Positions 8,671-64,000 of a stretch of DNA of 64,000 nt are shown one piece after another. The stretch is taken from assembly GCA_944381625.1 (NCBI GenBank), contig CALWLW010000019.1, positions 1 through 64,000 of the forward strand. Reading direction: 5' to 3'. Below the pieces are notes generated by a model that saw only the letters and a program-made list of their open reading frames with translations, made no database searches and was not told the origin of the DNA. A program made the position numbers and the translations under genes. The DNA comes from an uncultured Lachnoclostridium sp. GTDB lineage: Bacteria; Bacillota; Clostridia; Lachnospirales; Lachnospiraceae. Each line of letters opens with the position of its first letter. The stretch's first letter is position 1.

Positions 8671-10779
8671 TTACTTATCCTTAATCGTGCGCAGGATCAT
8701 GGAACAGACCGGCGGAACCTTCAGGTAGAGGATGCCTTTCTTGACCTCATAGACTTCCCCGCCCGTGCTGAACCCATTTTCCAGAGTCAGAAGCAGACGC
8801 TCCATCACCGCCTCTCTGGGGACGGATGCCAGCCATACCGGTATGTTGATCTCTTTTTCTTCTTTTCCGTTGTTGATGACCACCACAATCTGATCCTCTT
8901 CACTGAACCGCCCGTAGCTGAGGAACTGGTACTCCGCCGCCAGGAAGCGGGTGGAGCCGTGGGTCAGCACCGGATTCTTCTTGCGGATATGGATCGCCTC
9001 TTTATGGAAAGAGAGCAGTTCCTGATCTTCCTTGCCCCAGGGATAAGTCCTCCGGTTATCCGGATCTGTAAAGCCGCATACGCCGGCCTCGTCCCCGTAG
9101 TAGATCGTGGGCGCTCCCACCCAGGTCATCTGGATCACCACCGCTTCCCTGAACACACCTTTGTTCACATTCTGGCTGGCGGCGTCCGCCCCCAGCGTAT
9201 GGATACGCCCCACCTTCTGGTTGGTCCGGGTCAGGAAGCGGGAGTGGTCGTGATTGGACAGCTCGTTCATGGCCGTCTGCAGGGAGGGGCCGTAGAAATT
9301 CGGCATCTGATAGGTCATGGCCTTCACAAACGCCTCCGCGTTGCCGTACATATCCTCCCGGTAGCTGTCGCTGTGCTTTTCCATCCCGGTCAGGAACCAG
9401 GTTACCGGCTCCATGAACGCATCGTAATTCATCAGCGTATCCCACTGGTCTCCCAGCAGCCATCTTTTGGAATTGCCGTAATGCTCCGCCAGGATCAGGG
9501 CGTTCGGGTTGGTCTCCTTCACTGCCCTGCGGAACCGTCTCCAGAACTCATGGTTATACTCCTCAGAGAATCCCAGGTCCGCCGCCACATCCAGCCGCCA
9601 GCCGTCCACGCTGTACGGAGGAAGCAGCCATTTTCTGGCCACGCCCAGGATGTATTCCACCAACTCCTCAGAAGCTTCATAATTCAGCTTGGGGAGAGTA
9701 TTGTGTCCCCACCAGCCCTCATAGAACTCATTGTACGGCCAGTCATGCTCATTGTTAAAACGGAAGAACGAGCGGTACGGGCTGTCCGCCGAAATGTACG
9801 CGCCTTTCTCATACCCTTCCGCATGCTCATACAGCAATTCCCGGTCCAGCCATTTGTTGAAGGAGCCGCAGTGGTTGAACACGCCGTCCAGTATGATCTT
9901 CATCCCCCTGCGGTGTACTTCCTCCACAAACCTGGCGAAAAATTCGTTGCTCGCCTCCAGGTTCTTTTTGTTCACCACCCGCTGGATATACTTGCTGGCA
10001 TGACTGTTGTTGTCGTCTCCTTCCGGCAGACACTCCCCTCCGTCCTCCACAATCACACCCAGGTGCGGATCGATATAATCATAATCCTGGCTGTCGTATT
10101 TATGGTTGGACGGGGACACAAAGATCGGGTTCAGGTACAGCACATCCACGCCCAGATCCTGCAGGTAGTCCAGCTTATCCCAGACACCCTGAAGATCTCC
10201 CCCATAGAAGGAACGCACATCCATATAATCAGGAACCTTTTCCCAATCCGTTACCCGGTGCACGCCTTCCTTAATATAAATATACTCCCGGTCCAGCACA
10301 TCGTTGGAGGGGTCCCCGTTGCAGAAACGGTCGGTGAAGATCTGGTACATGACCGCCCCCTTCGCCCAGCCCGGCGTTTTGAATCCCGGAACAATCCCGA
10401 AGGAGTAGACCTCCTGCAAGTCCTTGGATACACCCAGCTCGTTATAAAAACATCTCTGCCTGCCCGTATGAACCTCAAAATAATAATGCAGAGTCTCCTC
10501 TCCCAGCGGATCAGTAACATACGTGTAATAATCGAACGCCCCGCTGGTGCAGGCTTTCTGCATCAGAACCTTGCGGCTTCCGCAGATGATAAATACATAG
10601 TCCACATTATCTCTGGCCGTCCTGAACTTGATCGTCACCCGGTCGCCCACCTCAGGCTCAAACGGGATCCGGTAATTGGCCGTCTCATCGCTGAACAGCG
10701 CTTCCTTATTCAGAACCGGTCTCATATTCAATGCATACTGCTGCACACGCCTCGCTTTCGCAATCTCTTTCTCGTCCAT
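8671..10779 (-). CDS. GH13-family alpha-glycosidase (neopullulanase / cyclomaltodextrinase-like)
   Basis: Predicted intracellular hydrolysis of alpha-glucans such as maltodextrins; no signal peptide is visible. The 702-residue protein has an N-terminal beta domain, then the catalytic barrel. The classical GH13 regions are visible: DGVFNH, GWRLDVAAD (nucleophile Asp), AEHYG (acid/base Glu) and LSNHDHSR (transition-state Asp). ATG 10779 is 6 nt after AGGA; the frame opens six codons earlier. It has its own promoter and terminators on both sides. Neopullulanase is the nearest guess; pullulanase-type activity cannot be excluded. Confidence 0.87.
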   Translation of the reverse strand: MDEKEIAKARRVQQYALNMRPVLNKEALFSDETANYRIPFEPEVGDRVTIKFRTARDNVDYVFIICGSRKVLMQKACTSGAFDYYTYVTDPLGEETLHYYFEVHTGRQRCFYNELGVSKDLQEVYSFGIVPGFKTPGWAKGAVMYQIFTDRFCNGDPSNDVLDREYIYIKEGVHRVTDWEKVPDYMDVRSFYGGDLQGVWDKLDYLQDLGVDVLYLNPIFVSPSNHKYDSQDYDYIDPHLGVIVEDGGECLPEGDDNNSHASKYIQRVVNKKNLEASNEFFARFVEEVHRRGMKIILDGVFNHCGSFNKWLDRELLYEHAEGYEKGAYISADSPYRSFFRFNNEHDWPYNEFYEGWWGHNTLPKLNYEASEELVEYILGVARKWLLPPYSVDGWRLDVAADLGFSEEYNHEFWRRFRRAVKETNPNALILAEHYGNSKRWLLGDQWDTLMNYDAFMEPVTWFLTGMEKHSDSYREDMYGNAEAFVKAMTYQMPNFYGPSLQTAMNELSNHDHSRFLTRTNQKVGRIHTLGADAASQNVNKGVFREAVVIQMTWVGAPTIYYGDEAGVCGFTDPDNRRTYPWGKEDQELLSFHKEAIHIRKKNPVLTHGSTRFLAAEYQFLSYGRFSEEDQIVVVINNGKEEKEINIPVWLASVPREAVMERLLLTLENGFSTGGEVYEVKKGILYLKVPPVCSMILRTIKDK

Positions 10780-56241: not shown

Positions 56242-56979
56242 TCAATATCCGAACGTGTCCCGTATCTCCTCCGTATACTTCCCCGGCTCCTGAAATATGA
56301 TCAGCGGTCTTTCCACCGTGATCCTGGGTTTTCCGCCCTTCAAAGCCTCCAACAGCACCATATTGGGCTCCCGGTCCACAAAAGGATGAACCAGACGCAT
56401 GCGCTTGGGCTCCAGGCCATGGGCGCACAGTCCCGTCATAATCTCCGCCAGCCGGAAAGGACGGTGCACCATATAGAACCGTCCTCCCGGCGTCAGCAGT
56501 TTCGCCGCCTGGCTGATCACGTCTTCCAGCGTGCACAGCACTTCATGCCGGGCGATGGCCAGATGCTCCCTGGGATTTCTCAGCCCATGATCCGCCGTCA
56601 TGTAAGGCGGATTGCAAGTAACCACATGATAAGAAGCAGCCCCGAAGATCCGGGCCGCTTCCTTGATATCTCCTGTCACAATATGGACTCTGTCCTCCAG
56701 GCCATTCATCCGCACGCTGCGCCGGGCCATGTCCGCGCTCTCCTCCTGGATCTCCAGACCCGTAAAAGACTCTCCCTGAGTCTTCGCCTCCAGAAGTATG
56801 GGGATAATGCCGGTTCCCGTGCCCAGATCCAGCGCCCGCTCCTTCGGCTTTACCTTTGCAAATCCGGAGAGCAGCACCGCGTCCATGCCAAAACAGAAAC
56901 GGCCCGGATCCTGGATGATCCGATAGCCGTTGCGCTGCAGCTCGTCCACCCGCTCGCCGGGCTTTAATTCCATATCCAT
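56242..56979 (-). CDS. tRNA1(Val) (adenine37-N6)-methyltransferase-like protein (TrmN6/YabB)
   Basis: SAM-dependent methyltransferase of 245 residues. It has the motif I sequence DLGTGTGIIPILL, the acidic loop LEIQEESADMARR and the N6-methyladenine catalytic NPPY (VVTCNPPYMT). The start RVDELQRNGYRIIQDPGRFCFGMDAVL is typical of the YabB/TrmN6 branch. ATG 56979 is 5 nt after GAGG and overlaps the end of the upstream gene. Confidence 0.88.
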   Translation of the reverse strand: MDMELKPGERVDELQRNGYRIIQDPGRFCFGMDAVLLSGFAKVKPKERALDLGTGTGIIPILLEAKTQGESFTGLEIQEESADMARRSVRMNGLEDRVHIVTGDIKEAARIFGAASYHVVTCNPPYMTADHGLRNPREHLAIARHEVLCTLEDVISQAAKLLTPGGRFYMVHRPFRLAEIMTGLCAHGLEPKRMRLVHPFVDREPNMVLLEALKGGKPRITVERPLIIFQEPGKYTEEIRDTFGY

Positions 56980-56986
56980 AAATACC

Positions 56987-57775
56987 TCATAAAATATGAT
57001 GTTCTCTGATGTATTCCAGCGACTGTCTCTGCGCCTGCTCCCCCGCCACTTCCAGCAGTACAGAAGCCCGCACCTCATATCTGCGCATCAGGCTGACGAA
57101 CTGTTCCCAGTCGATCGTTCCCTGCCCCAGCGGCAGATGAAGATCTTCCTTCAGATTGTTGTCATTGATATGCATATGCCTGATGTAAGGAGCCGCCCCC
57201 TGGAACCACCGTTCAATCTGTTTTGCATCGCCGAATGCCATCGCGTGGGCATAATCCAGGCAGATTCCAAATCTGTCCTGGGATTCCAGGGCTTTTCCCA
57301 GTTCCGCCAGACTCTGTTCGTCTTCATCGAACATATTCTCTATATATATCTCCCGGTGGGGAAAATCCTCCAGCACACGCGTCCAGAATTCCACATTCTT
57401 CTCCACCCATCTCTTCCGGTAATACGGCGCGTAAAAATTACCCACCAGCCCGCTGTGGAATACCACGCCCCGCACGTCCAGCTCCTGGGCGATCTCCATG
57501 GATTGATAGATCCTCTTTCTGGATATCTCCCGGATCATGGCGTCCTGGCTGTGTATCGCAAGATCCAGAAAAGCTCCGTGGAGCGTATCCTGGCTTCGGT
57601 CCCGGCCAAGTCCCCGGTAAAATTCTATCTTCCTTCTGCATTCCTCTGTCTGATCCAGCTGCCGGGGCAGCATGAAATCATTATATTCAAATACAACTCC
57701 ATATTCTTCCGTCAGCTTCATCGTACGTTCTATATCGCAGATATCTGGAATGATCCCGATGACGCTTTTTTCCAT
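56987..57775 (-). CDS. Sugar phosphate isomerase/epimerase-like TIM barrel protein
   Basis: The 262-residue AP-endonuclease-2/xylose-isomerase-like barrel has candidate metal ligands in VVFHSGLV, IYIENMFDED, GICLDYAHAMAFGD and IRHMHINDNN, and a C-terminal Glu in LLEVAGEQ. Substrate unknown. It lies between the cyclic-nucleotide-binding gene (17 nt) and the methyltransferase gene, so it may be in the same transcript. Confidence 0.82.
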   Translation of the reverse strand: MEKSVIGIIPDICDIERTMKLTEEYGVVFEYNDFMLPRQLDQTEECRRKIEFYRGLGRDRSQDTLHGAFLDLAIHSQDAMIREISRKRIYQSMEIAQELDVRGVVFHSGLVGNFYAPYYRKRWVEKNVEFWTRVLEDFPHREIYIENMFDEDEQSLAELGKALESQDRFGICLDYAHAMAFGDAKQIERWFQGAAPYIRHMHINDNNLKEDLHLPLGQGTIDWEQFVSLMRRYEVRASVLLEVAGEQAQRQSLEYIREHHIL

Positions 57776-57792
57776 ATGATAAACCTCTATCT

Positions 57793-58272
57793 CTAATCCA
57801 TATTCTCAATTTCATCCACCAGTGCCTGATATACTTTCAGGAGGTTCTCATTCTCCTGGCGCAGATTCCGGCAGAGATTCGTGGCGATGAACATCAAAAG
57901 CCTGCACCCCACAGCCGGGAACTCCTGGCAGTAACGTTGAAAGTCCTCCGCAGATATGGAAAAAGTCCTGCAGTCAGTCTTGGCTCTGACCGTCGCTGAT
58001 CTGCGGTCATGATCGATCAGGGCAATCTCCCCAAACACACAGGAATACTCATCCTTCAGAGTAGCGCATACATATTCCTCCCCGTACAGCGTGGTCTTCA
58101 GTACCTCCACAGTGCCGTCCACCAGAAGATACATGGTGTCGCCTATATCCCCTTCTTCTATAATACGGCTCCCTGCCGGGAAATTTTCCTGTTTCATCAG
58201 TTCAGAAAGGTTTTCCAGGTCTTTGCTGTTCATTTCTGCCAGCATAGGAAACGATCTCAAATCATTTACCAT
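57793..58272 (-). CDS. Stand-alone cyclic nucleotide-binding domain protein
   Basis: The 159-residue protein is one CAP_ED domain plus a short C-terminal helix, without a DNA-binding domain. The phosphate-binding cassette is intact: FGEIALIDHDRRSATV with Glu82 and Arg91 in the ribose/phosphate-contacting places, so it should bind a cyclic nucleotide. ATG 58272 follows GGGAG; the frame to 58347 overlaps the channel gene. Position next to a 2TM channel and in a run with a nucleotide cyclase suggests it is the receptor that gates or regulates the channel. Confidence 0.88.
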   Translation of the reverse strand: MVNDLRSFPMLAEMNSKDLENLSELMKQENFPAGSRIIEEGDIGDTMYLLVDGTVEVLKTTLYGEEYVCATLKDEYSCVFGEIALIDHDRRSATVRAKTDCRTFSISAEDFQRYCQEFPAVGCRLLMFIATNLCRNLRQENENLLKVYQALVDEIENMD

Positions 58273-58291
58273 AATTATCCACTCCCTTTGT

Positions 58292-59467
58292 TTATAATTC
58301 CTCCGCCAGGACAATGACGCCGGAATTTCTGCCCACCACATAATCATCCGGTGGGTTTAAAACAGGCGCATTTCTCTCTACCGTACGTACCTCTTTAATC
58401 TTATGTACGATCTCTCCGTAGTTCGTGGATTTCTGTGCCTCTGCCAGCAGGGAACGTTTCAGTGTCCTCTCCGCTCCCATATTTTCCAGTATACCGATGG
58501 TCATCACATTCTGCTCTTTGTAATACTGGAAAAGCTCTCCAAAGGTCTTATTATGCCATTCTTCTCCAAGTTCAAAAATCTGCACGCTTACTCCGTCTCC
58601 ATTGTCAAACAGAGATGACAAAACCTTTGCCATTCCGTCGTAACTGGTCGCTGTAGAGAGGATATAGCGGGTATATTCTTCTGAATAAATCACCTCGTCA
58701 CACTTCTGTGCTTCCAGATAGTTTTTATATTTTTTTGTCTTGACCTCCGCGCATATGTGAATCCTGGGATTGATACCGCGGATCATAAGGACTGCGGCAA
58801 ACACTCTGGAATCCGAAAGCTCCGGCTCCAGGCCTTCCTGATTCTCCCCCATAACAAGGGCGCGGGACGCCGCCTTGACGTTTGCCCTCTGAAGGATCTG
58901 TTCTTCCGAGTAGTCTCCTCTGACATAGCGGATGCCTTTCAGCTCCCCGTCATCCAGCAGCAGCTGCATCCTGGACTCGTCCACATCGTTGATCAGTACA
59001 ATATCCCCAAAACGGATGGAACGGTTTTTCCTGACAATATCCAGGATCAATGCCCTCAGATCATCCTTCCACCCACATATAATAACATGATTTCTCAAAC
59101 TCTGCAATTTTTTCATACCTCTCATGGAATTCATATTGCGCTCAATCAGAGCCGATGAAATATATCCGGTGATCGCTGATACTCCGAACATGCCGATCAG
59201 CAGCAGCACCAGGCCCAAAAGCCGGCCTGCCACACTGACAGGATAATGGTCGGCAAAATCCTGTCCGAACAGAGTCGCCGTGTTCCACAGGATTACATCC
59301 AGAAACCCGGCGCTCATCGCCCCGTCAAATTCCACATACCAGTAAAGAAGACAGCAGAGTATATAAAAAGTGATAATTCCTATCGTCGCGGCCAGATGTC
59401 CTCTATGCCGGATCCGGGACAGACACCGTCTTATCCTGCCCCGGACAGCATTCCGTTTTCTTTTCAT
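58292..59467 (-). CDS. 2TM ion channel-like protein with RCK/TrkA-N domains and non-canonical pore
   Basis: The 391-residue protein has TM1 (about 26-46), a re-entrant pore region, TM2 (about 81-108), then a TrkA-N/RCK-like regulatory region (NHVIICGWKDDLRALILDIV, ICAEVKTKKYKNYLEAQKCD) and a second RCK-like part. This is the layout of MthK-type K+ channels or CASTOR/POLLUX-type ion channels. The selectivity filter reads TLFGQDFAD rather than TVGYGD, so ion selectivity is uncertain. The Rossmann glycines are also incomplete. The start is 5 nt after the FecR gene. Confidence 0.82.
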   Translation of the reverse strand: MKRKRNAVRGRIRRCLSRIRHRGHLAATIGIITFYILCCLLYWYVEFDGAMSAGFLDVILWNTATLFGQDFADHYPVSVAGRLLGLVLLLIGMFGVSAITGYISSALIERNMNSMRGMKKLQSLRNHVIICGWKDDLRALILDIVRKNRSIRFGDIVLINDVDESRMQLLLDDGELKGIRYVRGDYSEEQILQRANVKAASRALVMGENQEGLEPELSDSRVFAAVLMIRGINPRIHICAEVKTKKYKNYLEAQKCDEVIYSEEYTRYILSTATSYDGMAKVLSSLFDNGDGVSVQIFELGEEWHNKTFGELFQYYKEQNVMTIGILENMGAERTLKRSLLAEAQKSTNYGEIVHKIKEVRTVERNAPVLNPPDDYVVGRNSGVIVLAEEL

Positions 59468-59472
59468 CTATT

Positions 59473-60663
59473 CTATTCCTCTACCCAGGTCACTGTAGTA
59501 TCCTGAGTGACCGCCGTCCCGAAGTCATAATTCCAATGTCCCTGGCTCGTTGGCTGGAGAGTCGGTTCCGCCGCGCTGGCTCCCTCCTCCACCGTCACCG
59601 TATAAAACACATTTCCCTGATAGGTAAAGGTCACCGTATAAGATTCGGCTGTTTCTGAAGAGTCATCCGAAGAACTGCTCCCCGAACTGCCGGACCCGGA
59701 GGAACTTCCGGAACTGGAAGAGCCTCCGGAGCTGGAGGAACCCCCTGAAGAACCGGAACCGCCTCCCGCATTTCCGCCGGTACTGCTCCCGCCGCCCTGT
59801 TCAGGCACGTCTGCCGGTACTGCGGTCTCCGGTTCTATCAGTTCGGGAACCGGCTCCTCCTTTTCCTTCTTTTCTATTTCCTCTGTCTCCTCCTGCACCG
59901 GCTTCTTCCCATAGAGAAGTTCGATCCAGGCGTCGATCTCTTCCTCGGTAATGCAGAGTTCTGCTCCGTTTTTAATGCACAGTTTCAGGAATTGCAGAGC
60001 CTCCAGCGAGTATCTCTCGAACTGTATCTCCATCATATCATATGGATAATATTCCGAGATCTGTTCGTCTCCGCGGATATTTACCTGCATGCCCGACGGC
60101 GCCTGCCGCTCTTCTTCCAGTGTTTCCACCGTTCCGTCCGGGAAGATCAGACGGGAACCCGCAGCGCCCTCCAGCACGGATACACAGGTATAGCTGTCCT
60201 GCTTCTCATCATACCGTACTTCCACCCGGAATACCGTTCCCCGGACAGCCATGGTGGAGTTGGGCACCGTAACCTCATAGACCGACTCCTCCGTAAGCTT
60301 CTGGGTCAGATGGTTAACCACCGCTCCTTCCTTCAGATGGATCGTCGTCCGACTGTTCTCTCTTGTCCCTTCCGCCACCAGTTCCAGTTCTGTGCCGGAT
60401 TCCAACAGCACGTATTTATCATCATCCAGATTCAGGATCATATAACTGTCCTCCGGCACAGTCACATAGTCTCCGGATTCCAGCCTCATATTTTCATAAG
60501 CTTCCAGTTCTCCCACGGTCTCCCGGTCTATCACGGCGCTCCCTTCCAGCTCCATGATCTCGATCAGCCGGTAGGATTCCTCTTTATTTCCGCGGCCCAC
60601 AGCTACGGCCAGGCATACTGCCGCGGCCACAGCCACTGCTCCGGGTATCATCCATTTTTTCAT
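59473..60663 (-). CDS. FecR-domain secreted or membrane-anchored protein
   Basis: The 396-residue protein has an N-terminal membrane anchor or signal (about 5-23) and a FecR domain (about 30-170; GTELELVAEGTRENSRTTIH, VPNSTMAVRGTVFRVEV). Then come an acidic KE-rich stretch, a long Gly/Ser linker and a C-terminal beta-grasp-like repeat (SYTVTFTYQGNVFYTVTVEE) like those of the neighbouring InlB-repeat protein. It is not next to a sigma factor, so it is not a classical FecIR regulator. FecR domains next to CHASE2-type cyclases are known in other bacteria. Confidence 0.85.
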   Translation of the reverse strand: MKKWMIPGAVAVAAAVCLAVAVGRGNKEESYRLIEIMELEGSAVIDRETVGELEAYENMRLESGDYVTVPEDSYMILNLDDDKYVLLESGTELELVAEGTRENSRTTIHLKEGAVVNHLTQKLTEESVYEVTVPNSTMAVRGTVFRVEVRYDEKQDSYTCVSVLEGAAGSRLIFPDGTVETLEEERQAPSGMQVNIRGDEQISEYYPYDMMEIQFERYSLEALQFLKLCIKNGAELCITEEEIDAWIELLYGKKPVQEETEEIEKKEKEEPVPELIEPETAVPADVPEQGGGSSTGGNAGGGSGSSGGSSSSGGSSSSGSSSGSGSSGSSSSDDSSETAESYTVTFTYQGNVFYTVTVEEGASAAEPTLQPTSQGHWNYDFGTAVTQDTTVTWVEE

Positions 60664-60678
60664 TCTTTCTCTCCCACT

Positions 60679-63177
60679 TTATTCCGTAAACGTATAATAT
60701 CCGCTGGTCCGCACGTAGAACGTGATCCCGCTCTCATACTGTCCAGCGTCACCCTGGACCTTTGCCCTGAAATCCAGTCCGTACTGCTGTCCGCTGATCA
60801 GATAATAGGTACCGGGACCGCCAATCCTGCTGTAAGCTATCTTCCACATGGCCCTCAGTGTCTCATCCATATCCGGCATGATAAAAGTGGCGCCTGCTCC
60901 AATCACCTTACCCGTGGAGATCTGCTCCCACCCCGTGAACACATAGCCGTCGCGCACAGGACCCGCCCCGGCCGTTACGGTGGCATTATAATCTGCCTCC
61001 TGAGAACCGGGCACGCCCGATACCGCGCCTCCGCCGTCATAATTTACCTGATGGCGGTTCCGCGTCCATGAGGCCGTCAGCACCAGAGTGGCCGTCAGAT
61101 TCTCGTTGTAGTCTGCCGCCGGAATCTCAAAGGTACTGCCCGCCGGATAAAGGACTCCGCCATACTCCCAGCCCGCAAAAGTATAACCGACCCTGGAGGG
61201 ACTGAGCGCAGGAAGTTCTATCCGTCCGCCATAATACAGATTTTCCACGGGTGAAGACGGAACGCCCATACCGGCGCCATTCCCGTCATACACAATCTTA
61301 TATTTGACCGGCGTCCATCCGGCAGTGATGACCGCGTCCCTTGCCGGCATACGGGCTCCTTCAGGGAGCGGATCGTTCTGGGAATAGTACCCGAGCGGAC
61401 AGCCTTCGATACCCTGGCCGCCGTTCTCCGCATCCCAGCCCAGGAACACATAGCCCGGCTTCACCGGATCTTCAGGAAGTCCCACCTTATCGCCGTAGGA
61501 AACCTTTTCTGTGCCGTATGTCTGTACCGTATAATTTCCTTCTATGGAAGGGCTATAAGCATCCGCCTCCCTGTCCTTCCAGACCAGGCTGTACTCCTGC
61601 TCCGTCCAGACGCCGTACAGCGCCGCATTCCCTTCCACGGTATAAGTATCTGTATAATCCGGGACTTCGGCTTCTTCGGAGGCCGCCCATCCCAGGAAAC
61701 GGTATTTTCCGCTGCTGTCCGTCAGTTTCTTTAATCGGAGAGAATTCCCTGTATTTTCCGTCTCCTTACCGGGTGACTGGATCGCTGCATCTGCCTCCGG
61801 ATAATTTGCGTCAAAGGTTATCTCTCCTCCCCAGACCGGCGTGCAGATGATCTTAGCGCAGCCGGAGGGCAGTTTATCCGTCCCGTTTAATGAAGCGCCG
61901 TTCCCGGTCTGGTACTTCCAGCCTCTGAAGGTGTAGCCGGGCCGGGAGGCTGTGACGGATGAGGCTGTCTTCAGGTCTTCTATAGATGTTGTATTATCCA
62001 CAACAGCAATACTGCTTTGTCCATTTACCAGTTCTATGCTGTTATTATTTGATAAAAAAGCTCCTTCAAACGTTACGTTACTGTCAGAAGACTGGTAGAG
62101 CAGTTCTACACAGCGCTGAAGGTCGCCCGCCTTTATTTTAACCGTGTAGCATGATACATTTATTCCGTCATATATAACATCTTCTGGCTTCGCATTATCC
62201 AGATTTAAATTACCCATCTGTATCTTGTATGTATGGTCTGTGCTGTACTGTTCATCTAATGTTGTATAGATGCCGACCGGATCTCGTGTTGTACTTCCTG
62301 CGGATATTTCAGTATTGCCAATTGTCAAATCTATTCCGGTACTGTTTTCTATTTTAATCAGATAACCGCTGGAGGGATCTGGTTTCCAGTAGGAGACAAA
62401 ATTGGCCTTGGGATTACTATAAGTAATGCCATATTCATTAGTATTATCAAGATCTTTAATATAATTCTTCACCGAAAATCCTGGCGTAATTGACTCCTTT
62501 TCAAAGTTTTCTTCATTCAAAGTCCACTTTACTAAATCGTATCCTTCCTGTTCTTTTTCAGGTTTAGAAATTGAATCTCCTGCTTTATACTGTTTTTCTG
62601 TAAGAAGAACCCCATCCACCGTCACTTTAATTTCCTGACACCAGCCTGCAGTTAAGGTGATGACCATATCTTTATTGTCATCTTCCTTACCAAGTTTCTT
62701 TAATTCATCTATACCAATCTCTGTACCTTCAGAATATGATGTGTCTTCACCAGCATACCACTTATCAAACACATACCCCTCTGCCGGCTGGCGTGTGCTT
62801 CCCGTACCAATCGTAAACGTTCCTGTATCACCCAGTTCGATTTTACCCGACGTTCCCCCTGTCCCATCCGGATAATTATAATTATACACAACATAATAAG
62901 TTGTTCCTGCATCAAGCGCCTGCCCCTGGGGACCGCCTTCTTCCGGTCCGCCTTCTTGGAACCCGCCTTCAAGTCCATTTGGGTTAGTCTCTCCATCCCC
63001 ATTCTGAGGCTGTAAACCGGATTCTCCTCCCGTTTGTCCGCCTTCGTTCTGAGGCGGCGCCCCGTCCAGTACATTTACTCCATTGTTCTCCGCCGCATAT
63101 CCGGTCATTCCCAGGCCGACGAACGCCATGCAGATGACTAACAGAACAGCCCCCAGTTCTTTCATTCCTTTTCTCAT
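60679..63177 (-). CDS. InlB B-repeat surface protein
   Basis: Secreted protein of about 832 residues. A signal peptide (MRKGMKELGAVLLVICMAFV) is followed by a Gly/Gln/Glu low-complexity region and at least seven modules with a GYxFxGW core (for example GYTFRGW, GYVFLGW, GYTFAGW, GYVFTGW), as in InlB B-repeat/Listeria-Bacteroides repeats. No LPxTG sorting signal is present; the end is YYTFTE. ATG 63177 was chosen because the signal peptide begins there; the SD is weak. FecR follows 15 nt downstream. Confidence 0.85.
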   Translation of the reverse strand: MRKGMKELGAVLLVICMAFVGLGMTGYAAENNGVNVLDGAPPQNEGGQTGGESGLQPQNGDGETNPNGLEGGFQEGGPEEGGPQGQALDAGTTYYVVYNYNYPDGTGGTSGKIELGDTGTFTIGTGSTRQPAEGYVFDKWYAGEDTSYSEGTEIGIDELKKLGKEDDNKDMVITLTAGWCQEIKVTVDGVLLTEKQYKAGDSISKPEKEQEGYDLVKWTLNEENFEKESITPGFSVKNYIKDLDNTNEYGITYSNPKANFVSYWKPDPSSGYLIKIENSTGIDLTIGNTEISAGSTTRDPVGIYTTLDEQYSTDHTYKIQMGNLNLDNAKPEDVIYDGINVSCYTVKIKAGDLQRCVELLYQSSDSNVTFEGAFLSNNNSIELVNGQSSIAVVDNTTSIEDLKTASSVTASRPGYTFRGWKYQTGNGASLNGTDKLPSGCAKIICTPVWGGEITFDANYPEADAAIQSPGKETENTGNSLRLKKLTDSSGKYRFLGWAASEEAEVPDYTDTYTVEGNAALYGVWTEQEYSLVWKDREADAYSPSIEGNYTVQTYGTEKVSYGDKVGLPEDPVKPGYVFLGWDAENGGQGIEGCPLGYYSQNDPLPEGARMPARDAVITAGWTPVKYKIVYDGNGAGMGVPSSPVENLYYGGRIELPALSPSRVGYTFAGWEYGGVLYPAGSTFEIPAADYNENLTATLVLTASWTRNRHQVNYDGGGAVSGVPGSQEADYNATVTAGAGPVRDGYVFTGWEQISTGKVIGAGATFIMPDMDETLRAMWKIAYSRIGGPGTYYLISGQQYGLDFRAKVQGDAGQYESGITFYVRTSGYYTFTE

Positions 63178-63220
63178 TTTGTAACACCATCCCATATAAA
63201 AAATGCACAAATACAATCTC

Positions 63221-63249
63221 ATAATAATGGATAAATCTGAATAATACAA
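63221..63249 (-). promoter_or_regulatory. Candidate promoter of the InlB-repeat gene run
   Basis: The minus strand has TTGTAT (63244-63249), a 17-bp spacer and TATTAT (63221-63226), about 44 bp before the chosen start. If real, the surface protein/FecR/channel/cNMP-binding genes can be expressed separately from the cyclase. Confidence 0.5.
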
Positions 63250-63396
63250 GTCATTTTATTCCAACTTTTCTGCAGAGATATGGTAATATTTTCCATAAGT
63301 CCAATACTCCTCGTAAATGTCCATACACCGCCCCCACGGCAGCCTTCAGACGAACGTACCGGTATACTCCTGTCCTGTTATCCGCATAACTATACA

Positions 63397-63421
63397 ACAG
63401 GCAGGGAAACTCCCTGCCTGT
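63397..63421 (-). terminator. Strong hairpin after the cyclase gene
   Basis: ACAGGCAGGGA and TCCCTGCCTGT form a perfect 11-bp stem with a 3-nt loop, 17 bp after the cyclase stop. No T run follows (TGTATAG), so it may be a weak terminator or mRNA 3'-end stabiliser. The 63250-63396 remainder has short out-of-frame fragments only. Confidence 0.5.
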
Positions 63422-63438
63422 ACGTCTGTTTTTTATAT

Positions 63439-64000
63439 TCAGATGTCTGCCGTCTCAGGTTTCTGTCCTGTCACCTTTTTCAGATCATAGGCGAGGACGC
63501 CATGACTTTTTCCCTTCAGCAGAATAGCCCCAATCTGATCAGCTTCCACCCGGTCTTTCACCGCTTCATACACATCCTCGCTGATCAGGATCTGTCCGCT
63601 TTTGGCCGCTCCCTCCAGACGGGAAGCCGTATTCACCGTATCCCCGATGGCCGTATAATCCATCCGGAAATCACATCCGATATTTCCCACGACTGCGGGG
63701 CCGCAGTGCACGCCGACGCCAAAACTGATCTTCTTTCCAAAACGCCTCAGCAGTTTCCGTTCCAGTTCATCCGCCCCCTCAACAATATCCATGGCCGCGC
63801 AGACAGCCCGATATACATAATCCTCCAGATCAAACGGCGCGTTGAACACCGCCATAGCCGCGTCCCCGATAAATTTATCCAGCGTTCCCCCATTTTTCAA
63901 TATGGCCTGGGTCGCGAGCGTAAGATATTCATTCAGGATTTCCACCACCCTCTCCGGGCGGATAAACTCCGACATGGACGTAAATCCGCGGATATCCACA
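63439..64000 (-). CDS. Class III adenylate/guanylate cyclase catalytic domain (partial at right edge)
   Basis: Makes a cyclic nucleotide from NTP. The visible 187 residues are the C-terminal cyclase domain: metal-binding Asp residues in DIRGFT and FIGDAAMAVF, a substrate-specifying Lys in TLDKFIGD, and AIGDTVNTASRLEG with the transition-state Asn and Arg. The residue paired with the Lys is Thr (YTAIG), as in class IIIb adenylyl cyclases. The frame runs off the window, so the N-terminus (often CHASE2 in proteins of this kind) is unseen. The M near the edge is internal. Confidence 0.92.
   Translation of the reverse strand, partial: VDIRGFTSMSEFIRPERVVEILNEYLTLATQAILKNGGTLDKFIGDAAMAVFNAPFDLEDYVYRAVCAAMDIVEGADELERKLLRRFGKKISFGVGVHCGPAVVGNIGCDFRMDYTAIGDTVNTASRLEGAAKSGQILISEDVYEAVKDRVEADQIGAILLKGKSHGVLAYDLKKVTGQKPETADI

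What the first reader, a model, noticed from the sequence alone, without database searches (positions are those of the whole stretch)
57793..64000. Candidate complete cyclic-nucleotide signalling pathway: cyclase, FecR protein, InlB-repeat protein, 2TM/RCK channel and stand-alone cNMP receptor
Class III cyclases and CAP_ED receptors are uncommon in Lachnospiraceae, yet here the maker and the reader of the messenger lie within 6 kb on one strand with an ion channel between them. Seen in sequence: an intact cyclase active site, an intact phosphate-binding cassette (Glu82, Arg91) in a receptor with no output domain, and a channel with no cNMP domain of its own. Inference: the receptor gates the channel in trans, a split cyclic-nucleotide-gated channel, while the FecR and InlB-repeat proteins sense or build something at the cell surface. 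FecR next to CHASE2-cyclases is known elsewhere; this five-part set is not one I know.
Basis: partly seen in the sequence, partly recalled or inferred. Interest (0 to 1): 0.85.

Follow-up and report, generated by a model that had tools for sequence, protein, structure and literature searches.

The report
Split cyclic-nucleotide-gated channel signalling cassette
A gut bacterium carries a compact gene set that appears to make cyclic AMP, read it with a small receptor encoded as a separate partner of an ion channel, and destroy it with an enzyme of a kind not yet known for that job.

Summary
The five genes are there; the cyclase is completed beyond the window edge (614 aa, CHASE2 plus class III domain). 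In 15 same-genus genomes with rsmI found, the block starts next to rsmI in 6; in 9 rsmI and trmN are neighbours.

The split-channel idea holds up as a genetic unit. Of 79 named channel loci, 74 have a stand-alone cNMP-binding gene directly downstream, across several phyla. Phosphate-binding Gly/Glu/Arg are kept in 75 of 75 receptors. All 75 partnered channels carry a ~40-residue RCK insert; four channels without a receptor lack it. This Bacillota/Mycoplasmatota clade has lost the TVGYGD filter.

The TIM protein is the boldest part. In 299 Lachnospiraceae genomes, 32 have it strongly and all 32 have a class III cyclase; 18 other cyclase genomes carry a metallo-beta-lactamase-fold protein resembling phosphodiesterases, 4 neither, none both. 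Nine endonuclease-IV-type metal ligands are conserved. I read it as a cNMP phosphodiesterase of a new fold class.

I know of no biochemistry on any part. Interest 0.78.

The parts
63439..64000 (-). CHASE2 class III nucleotide cyclase (Lys/Thr pattern), C-terminal part; the whole gene runs to 65283 on contig C19 (614 aa)
60679..63249 (-). InlB-type repeat protein with N-terminal hydrophobic segment (856 aa from TTG; an ATG lies at 63177; the piece scanned began at codon 23)
59473..60663 (-). FecR-domain protein with one N-terminal hydrophobic segment
58292..59467 (-). 2TM channel with RCK domain; filter region TATLFGQDFADHYPVS; ~40-residue insert around residues 330-369
57793..58272 (-). stand-alone cyclic-nucleotide-binding receptor, 159 aa, intact phosphate-binding cassette (G81, E82, R91), conserved C-terminal helix
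56987..57775 (-). AP_endonuc_2 TIM-barrel protein, candidate cNMP phosphodiesterase; nine endonuclease-IV-type metal ligands conserved
56242..56979 (-). trmN-like methyltransferase gene: left border, not part of the cassette (rsmI, the right border, is outside the window)

Best explanation
A six-gene block, present or absent as a whole at one chromosomal site, encodes a cAMP circuit. The CHASE2 cyclase, with FecR and InlB-repeat proteins at the cell surface, makes cAMP in response to an outside cue (inferred). The 159-residue receptor binds it, docks on the RCK ring of the adjacent 2TM channel, probably at the extra helical hairpin in the RCK C-lobe, and gates the pore in trans: a cyclic-nucleotide-gated channel split into two polypeptides (pairing shown by genomics; binding, docking and gating inferred). 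The TIM-barrel protein ends the signal as a phosphodiesterase (inferred from distribution and metal ligands). In this clade the pore has lost the K+ signature, so it may pass other or mixed cations (inferred).
For: Block between rsmI and trmN: rsmI is next to the cyclase in 6 and next to trmN in 9 of the 15 same-genus genomes where rsmI was found, of 17 searched. Receptor gene directly downstream of the channel in 74 of 79 loci; none within 1.5 kb in 28 other Lachnospiraceae channel loci. Two-way linkage in 299 family genomes. Receptor G, E, R in 75 of 75; insert 40-43 residues in 75 of 75 partnered channels, 4-5 in the four unpartnered. Class III cyclase in 43 of 50 pair genomes searched, 25 of 31 for the Bacillota/Mycoplasmatota ones; in the genus 6 of 6 with the receptor ortholog and 2 of 11 without. 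TIM: 32 of 32 genomes with a strong hit also have a cyclase, 28 within 10 kb; no overlap with the MBL-fold protein among 54 cyclase genomes or 31 further genomes.
Against: No ligand binding, contact or current has been measured here. In the DNA held, only one pair locus outside the close relatives has a cyclase match, on the other strand 7.7 kb away (L055). 7 of 50 pair genomes show no class III cyclase; all seven are MAGs by title. The tethered AlphaFold model has pTM 0.48, so it says nothing on docking. The window channel's pore score is under the Pfam cut-off. The association counts ignore shared ancestry. TIM's fold is as close to sugar epimerases as to endonuclease IV; 25 of 31 Bacillota/Mycoplasmatota pair genomes lack a strong TIM; outside these phyla 5 genomes have weak hits to both TIM and MBL profiles.
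Confidence: 0.62

Rival explanations
1. Receptor and channel are a real complex, but the RCK domain's own ligand (Ca2+, a nucleotide, other) does the gating; the receptor is an assembly or tuning subunit, or senses something other than a cNMP.
For: RCK of the MthK/Slo type; most relatives have no linked cyclase in the DNA held.
Against: Phosphate-binding G/E/R kept in 75 of 75 receptors; class III cyclases in 43 of 50 pair genomes.
Confidence: 0.2
2. The receptor is merely co-transcribed with the channel and acts on something else.
For: Stand-alone cNMP-binding proteins also lie beside cyclases with no channel of this family found in the locus (L155, L156).
Against: 74 of 79 linkage while other neighbours change from one phylum to another; the insert tracks receptor presence.
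Confidence: 0.08
3. The TIM-barrel protein is a sugar epimerase/isomerase or a cobamide-type hydrolase linked to cyclases for another reason; cAMP is removed by another enzyme or exported.
Against: Nine endonuclease-IV-type ligands invariant in 15 of 15; below the CbiR cut-off, 48.8 of 105 bits; co-occurrence with cyclases and exclusion with an MBL-fold protein; found beside a PAS-type as well as CHASE2-type cyclases.
Confidence: 0.35
4. The module is an anti-phage device: a cyclic nucleotide made on infection, an effector channel that disrupts the membrane, in the manner of Pycsar or CBASS (recalled).
For: Cyclase plus cNMP-receptor membrane effector; the block is present or absent as a whole at one site.
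Against: CHASE2 and FecR/InlB surface parts point to an outside cue; in other phyla the pair has stable non-defence-like neighbours. No PADLOC scan was run.
Confidence: 0.04

Closest known systems
Bacterial cyclic-nucleotide-gated K+ channels (MloK1, SthK; recalled)
   Same: cNMP-binding domain coupled to a cation-channel pore
   Different: here the binding domain is a separate polypeptide, the cytoplasmic domain is RCK, and the window's filter is not TVGYGD
MthK / Slo RCK channels
   Same: pore plus RCK domain; best fold matches of the tethered L051 model (6oly, E 8.9e-16) and best profile hits
   Different: an extra ~40-residue stretch in the RCK C-lobe that unpartnered relatives lack, and a cNMP-receptor gene beside it
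CASTOR/DMI1 channels
   Same: RCK sequence similarity (E 1.7e-6 and 7.2e-6); Gly-Asn in the altered filter of relatives recalls their filter (recalled)
   Different: no Castor/Pollux Pfam match listed up to E 0.01
Campylobacterota CHASE2-cyclase/PDE/FecR/TPR cluster (PMC9239204, passages)
   Same: CHASE2 cyclase with FecR protein and a phosphodiesterase
   Different: no channel-receptor pair and no TIM-barrel enzyme is mentioned in the passages seen
CbiR cobamide phosphodiesterase (PMC7733943, passages) and endonuclease IV
   Same: AP_endonuc_2 TIM barrel, metal ligands, phosphodiester chemistry in the known members
   Different: below both NCBIfam cut-offs and linked to cyclases rather than cobamide or repair genes

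Membership tests
Class III nucleotide cyclase with CHASE2 sensor | Guanylate_cyc and CHASE2 domains over Pfam cut-offs | tested here: met
   89.7/21.9 and 139.3/26.3 bits
Class III nucleotide cyclase with CHASE2 sensor | two metal Asp, purine-binding Lys/Thr, transition-state Asn/Arg | tested here: met
   D430, D474, K470, T544, N551, R555 present; roles recalled; nearest PDB chains are adenylate cyclases
cNMP-binding (CAP_ED) domain | PF00027 over cut-off with phosphate-binding Gly-Glu...Arg | tested here: met
   75.1/27.5; G81, E82, R91, kept in 75 of 75
cNMP-binding (CAP_ED) domain | actual binding of a cyclic nucleotide | not testable with these tools
   needs protein
Classical CNG channel (one chain) | pore and cNMP-binding domain in one polypeptide | tested here: not met
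   separate genes in the window and in 74 of 79 relatives
K+ channel | TVGYGD-type selectivity filter | tested here: not met
   window has TATLFGQDFAD; TVGYGD in 38 of 77 rows, none in the Bacillota/Mycoplasmatota clade
RCK-gated 2TM channel (MthK/Slo type) | two hydrophobic segments then an RCK/TrkA_N domain | tested here: met
   segments 23-47 and 75-108; PF22614 52.9/24
RCK-gated 2TM channel (MthK/Slo type) | pore domain over the Pfam Ion_trans_2 cut-off | tested here: not met
   16.4 of 22.5 bits; a six-row profile does reach solved K+ channel pores, whole-sequence E 1.5e-4 and weaker
FecR domain protein | PF04773 over cut-off | tested here: met
   38.6/24
Endonuclease IV | NCBIfam score (TIGR00587) | tested here: not met
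   39.9 of 129.65 bits
Endonuclease IV | nine ligands of the three-metal site | tested here: met
   H66 H107 E146 D174 H177 H202 D211 H213 E242 invariant in 15 of 15; matched by eye to the printed alignment with Mtb endonuclease IV 5zhz; ligand list recalled
CbiR | NF041277 equivalog score | tested here: not met
   48.8 of 105 bits
cNMP phosphodiesterase | hydrolysis of 3',5'-cNMP | not testable with these tools
   inferred from distribution and ligands only
CHASE2-cyclase/PDE/FecR/TPR cluster | TPR protein in the cluster | not tested
   no TPR search was made
Anti-phage system (Pycsar/CBASS type) | match to defence-system models | not tested
   the PADLOC library was not searched

The most novel reading that the evidence does not exclude
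The cassette holds two unreported kinds at once: a cyclic-nucleotide-gated channel whose sensor is a separate subunit docking on an RCK insert, found in at least six bacterial phyla, with one clade that traded the K+ filter for others; and a new fold class of cyclic-nucleotide phosphodiesterase, an endonuclease-IV-like TIM barrel that replaces a metallo-beta-lactamase-fold enzyme as the eraser paired with class III cyclases in Lachnospiraceae.
Probability: 0.45. Interest if true: 0.9.

Novelty: new variant of a known kind. Interest (0 to 1): 0.78.

Why it matters
If true, it gives a whole cAMP circuit with writer, reader, output and eraser in a few kilobases of a gut Clostridium, where I know of few cAMP targets (my own knowledge). 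A channel whose ligand sensor is a separate subunit would let gating be dissected by mixing two proteins. The natural series from TVGYGD to GNDY, RGYT and FG-x-DFA filters would allow a test of how a K+ filter changes. A TIM-barrel phosphodiesterase would add a fold to a textbook enzyme group, and the swap with an MBL-fold protein makes that directly testable.

Tried and rejected
Rejected: an ordinary K+ channel beside an unrelated gene. Rejected: a five-gene unit; the rsmI-trmN comparison puts the TIM gene inside. Rejected: TIM as CbiR or endonuclease IV proper. Uninformative: the tethered channel-receptor AlphaFold model (pTM 0.48). The first tethered alignment with distant rows (A3) was misaligned and replaced by A4. 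No covariation analysis between channel and receptor was run.

Literature: searches returned no paper. One search listed 1, one search listed 3, one search listed 12 of 172; no listing I saw describes a channel with a separate cNMP-binding subunit, and the other 160 of one search were not seen. Searches (2; 12 of 97; 1) were also seen as listings. The library is open-access PMC only. Passages were seen in PMC9239204 and PMC7733943; no paper was read whole.

Rows and choices to tell: the 79 loci come from the best 80 of 159 relatives. The receptor profile was built on those same loci. Of the 74 pairs, 50 overlap as called, 43 of them by 1-4 bases; the other 7 depend on the start chosen and include L059, whose receptor frame was called with a far-upstream start. 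L087's channel is in two frames in its MAG and L089's is cut by the contig end; both are counted. L109 ends inside the channel and cannot be judged. Two of the 28 control loci (L016, L025) are cut short. One search covered 50 of the 74 pair loci's genomes: of the 24 left out, 6 are those duplicates and 18 were not searched. The 40 cyclase loci were picked by hand from score-ranked lists, 20 from pair genomes and 20 from the 54 family genomes; in them the MBL protein was looked for only within four genes of the cyclase. TIM hits with E 2.6e-54 to 6.8e-33 (13 genomes, none with a cyclase, none with MBL) were treated as another subfamily. Two MBL genomes lack a cyclase hit (G063, G168); four cyclase genomes have neither (G002, G011, G238, G248). 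In the 31 pair genomes, 21 MBL hits are at E 2.2e-80 or better, G331 is weak (7e-36), G319, G323, G324 have neither. Foldseek on the TIM model was not run; the VIA second look was. All P values ignore shared ancestry.
Full report
What is there. The window is bases 1-64000 of contig C19 of a 3.43 Mb genome. Reading past the right edge completes the cyclase: 614 aa, an N-terminal hydrophobic segment, a CHASE2 domain (26-318), further hydrophobic segments, then a class III catalytic domain (422-597). Its catalytic set is D430/D474, K470/T544, N551/R555, the Lys/Thr pattern of class IIIb adenylate cyclases (recalled); the nearest solved chains are adenylate cyclases, CyaB among them. Downstream on the same strand come an InlB-repeat protein, a FecR protein, a 2TM-RCK channel, a 159-aa cNMP receptor and an AP_endonuc_2 TIM-barrel protein; from FecR on the gaps are 5, 19 and 17 bases.

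Borders. I searched rsmI, the gene right of the cyclase, in 17 same-genus genomes; 15 gave a locus. In 6 the next gene is the cyclase; in 9 it is trmN, the gene left of the TIM protein. So the block runs from the cyclase to the TIM gene and is present or absent as a whole. The full order was read in four relatives (L046, L047, L048, L049) and part of it in L050. L046 and L047 have an extra 443-aa protein with several hydrophobic segments between cyclase and InlB-repeat gene. L051, another close relative, shows InlB-FecR-channel-receptor-TIM on a short contig.

The channel-receptor pair. A channel profile found 159 relatives in genome contigs; the best gave 79 loci. In 74 the next gene downstream on the same strand encodes a receptor relative: 50 overlap the channel gene as called (43 by 1-4 bases), 19 lie within 30 bases, 5 further. 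Of the five others, L109 is cut by its contig end and L121, L122, L127, L128 are longer channels. By record title and tree label the hosts include Bacillota, Mycoplasmatota (Anaeroplasma bactoclasticum ATCC 27112), Spirochaetota, Fidelibacterota/Neomarinimicrobiota, Thermodesulfobacteriota, Myxococcota, Cloacimonadota and Kryptoniota. In 68 pair loci outside the close relatives the outer neighbours differ: one gene family, by eye a valyl-tRNA synthetase, follows the receptor in 24 (25 loci in all); another, a Mbeg1-like hydrolase fused to a D-Ala-D-Ala-ligase-like part in the one member scanned, in 18 (20 in all). As a control, 28 other channel loci from Lachnospiraceae show no receptor match up to E 10 within 1.5 kb. 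In 299 family genomes, close orthologs of channel and receptor occur in the window's genome and in G116, and nowhere else.

Anatomy that fits docking. Between two anchors in the RCK C-lobe, 75 of 75 partnered channels (window included) have 40-43 residues; the four unpartnered have 4-5. AlphaFold draws this stretch in L051 as two helices, block pLDDT 71-76. The receptors keep Gly, Glu and Arg of the phosphate-binding cassette in 75 of 75, and a C-terminal helix is conserved in the seven first aligned. Docking itself is inference: the tethered model has pTM 0.48.

The pore. In a 77-row tree (L087, L089, L109 left out) 38 rows have TVGYGD, and two unpartnered ones have other filters. The 37 rows of the Bacillota/Mycoplasmatota clade (support 100/100) have none: 22 GNDY, 9 RGYT-like, 6 FG-x-DFA including the window. 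The row next to that clade is the TVGYGD channel of Thalassospirochaeta (100/99), though its branch is long, its place is flagged unsure, and the root is a midpoint. A single loss of the K+ signature is the simplest reading. What the altered pores conduct is unknown.

Link to cyclases. Of 50 pair genomes searched, 43 have a class III cyclase; the 7 without are all MAGs by title. For the 31 Bacillota/Mycoplasmatota ones it is 25 of 31, against 52 of 297 other family genomes (the two samples differ in make-up and shared ancestry is ignored). Within the genus it is 6 of 6 with the receptor ortholog and 2 of 11 without. Of 40 cyclase loci read, 28 have a FecR protein. So the writer side is a FecR/CHASE2-cyclase module, known in Campylobacterota together with a phosphodiesterase (PMC9239204, passages), and the cassette joins it to the channel pair.

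Verdict. The split-channel reading is well supported as a genetic unit and untested as a mechanism. The TIM-barrel phosphodiesterase is the most novel and most easily tested claim.

Noticed in passing
window 56987-57775; genomes: TIM-barrel and MBL-fold proteins never occur together among 54 Lachnospiraceae cyclase genomes (32 TIM, 18 MBL, 4 neither) nor among 31 further pair genomes.
   Followed up: yes
L157:9776-12073: TIM domain fused to GAF and HD_5 domains directly after the cyclase; GAF-HD_5 relatives occur in 21 of 40 cyclase loci, this fusion included.
   Followed up: partly
L170:6096-7274, L167:3289-4488: cNMP-binding domain fused to a SpoIIE-type phosphatase near a cyclase: another candidate output of the same messenger.
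   Followed up: no
L155:6602-9775, L156:8286-10955: Receptor-TIM-cyclase gene runs without a channel of this family; L155's cyclase has a PAS sensor and its receptor two cNMP-binding domains.
   Followed up: partly
L004:7465-8562 and 9829-10509: The window's genome has a second class III cyclase with a response-regulator domain and, close by, a CRP/FNR-type regulator.
   Followed up: no
L045:11615-14095; related genes in 20 loci: After the receptor in GNDY-filter pairs comes a Mbeg1-like hydrolase fused to a D-Ala-D-Ala-ligase-like part.
   Followed up: no
L046:10861-12192, L047:12699-14030: 443-aa protein with several hydrophobic segments between cyclase and InlB-repeat gene; relatives lie in cyclase loci L164, L166, L168, L170.
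   Followed up: partly
L127:9659-11080 and about 4 kb upstream: Longer relative of the channel without a receptor gene, with a cyclase-like ORF upstream on the same strand.
   Followed up: no
G125:C51:21597-26954: Two open frames of 393 and 403 aa with cNMP-binding matches on the same contig as a cyclase and a TIM gene.
   Followed up: no
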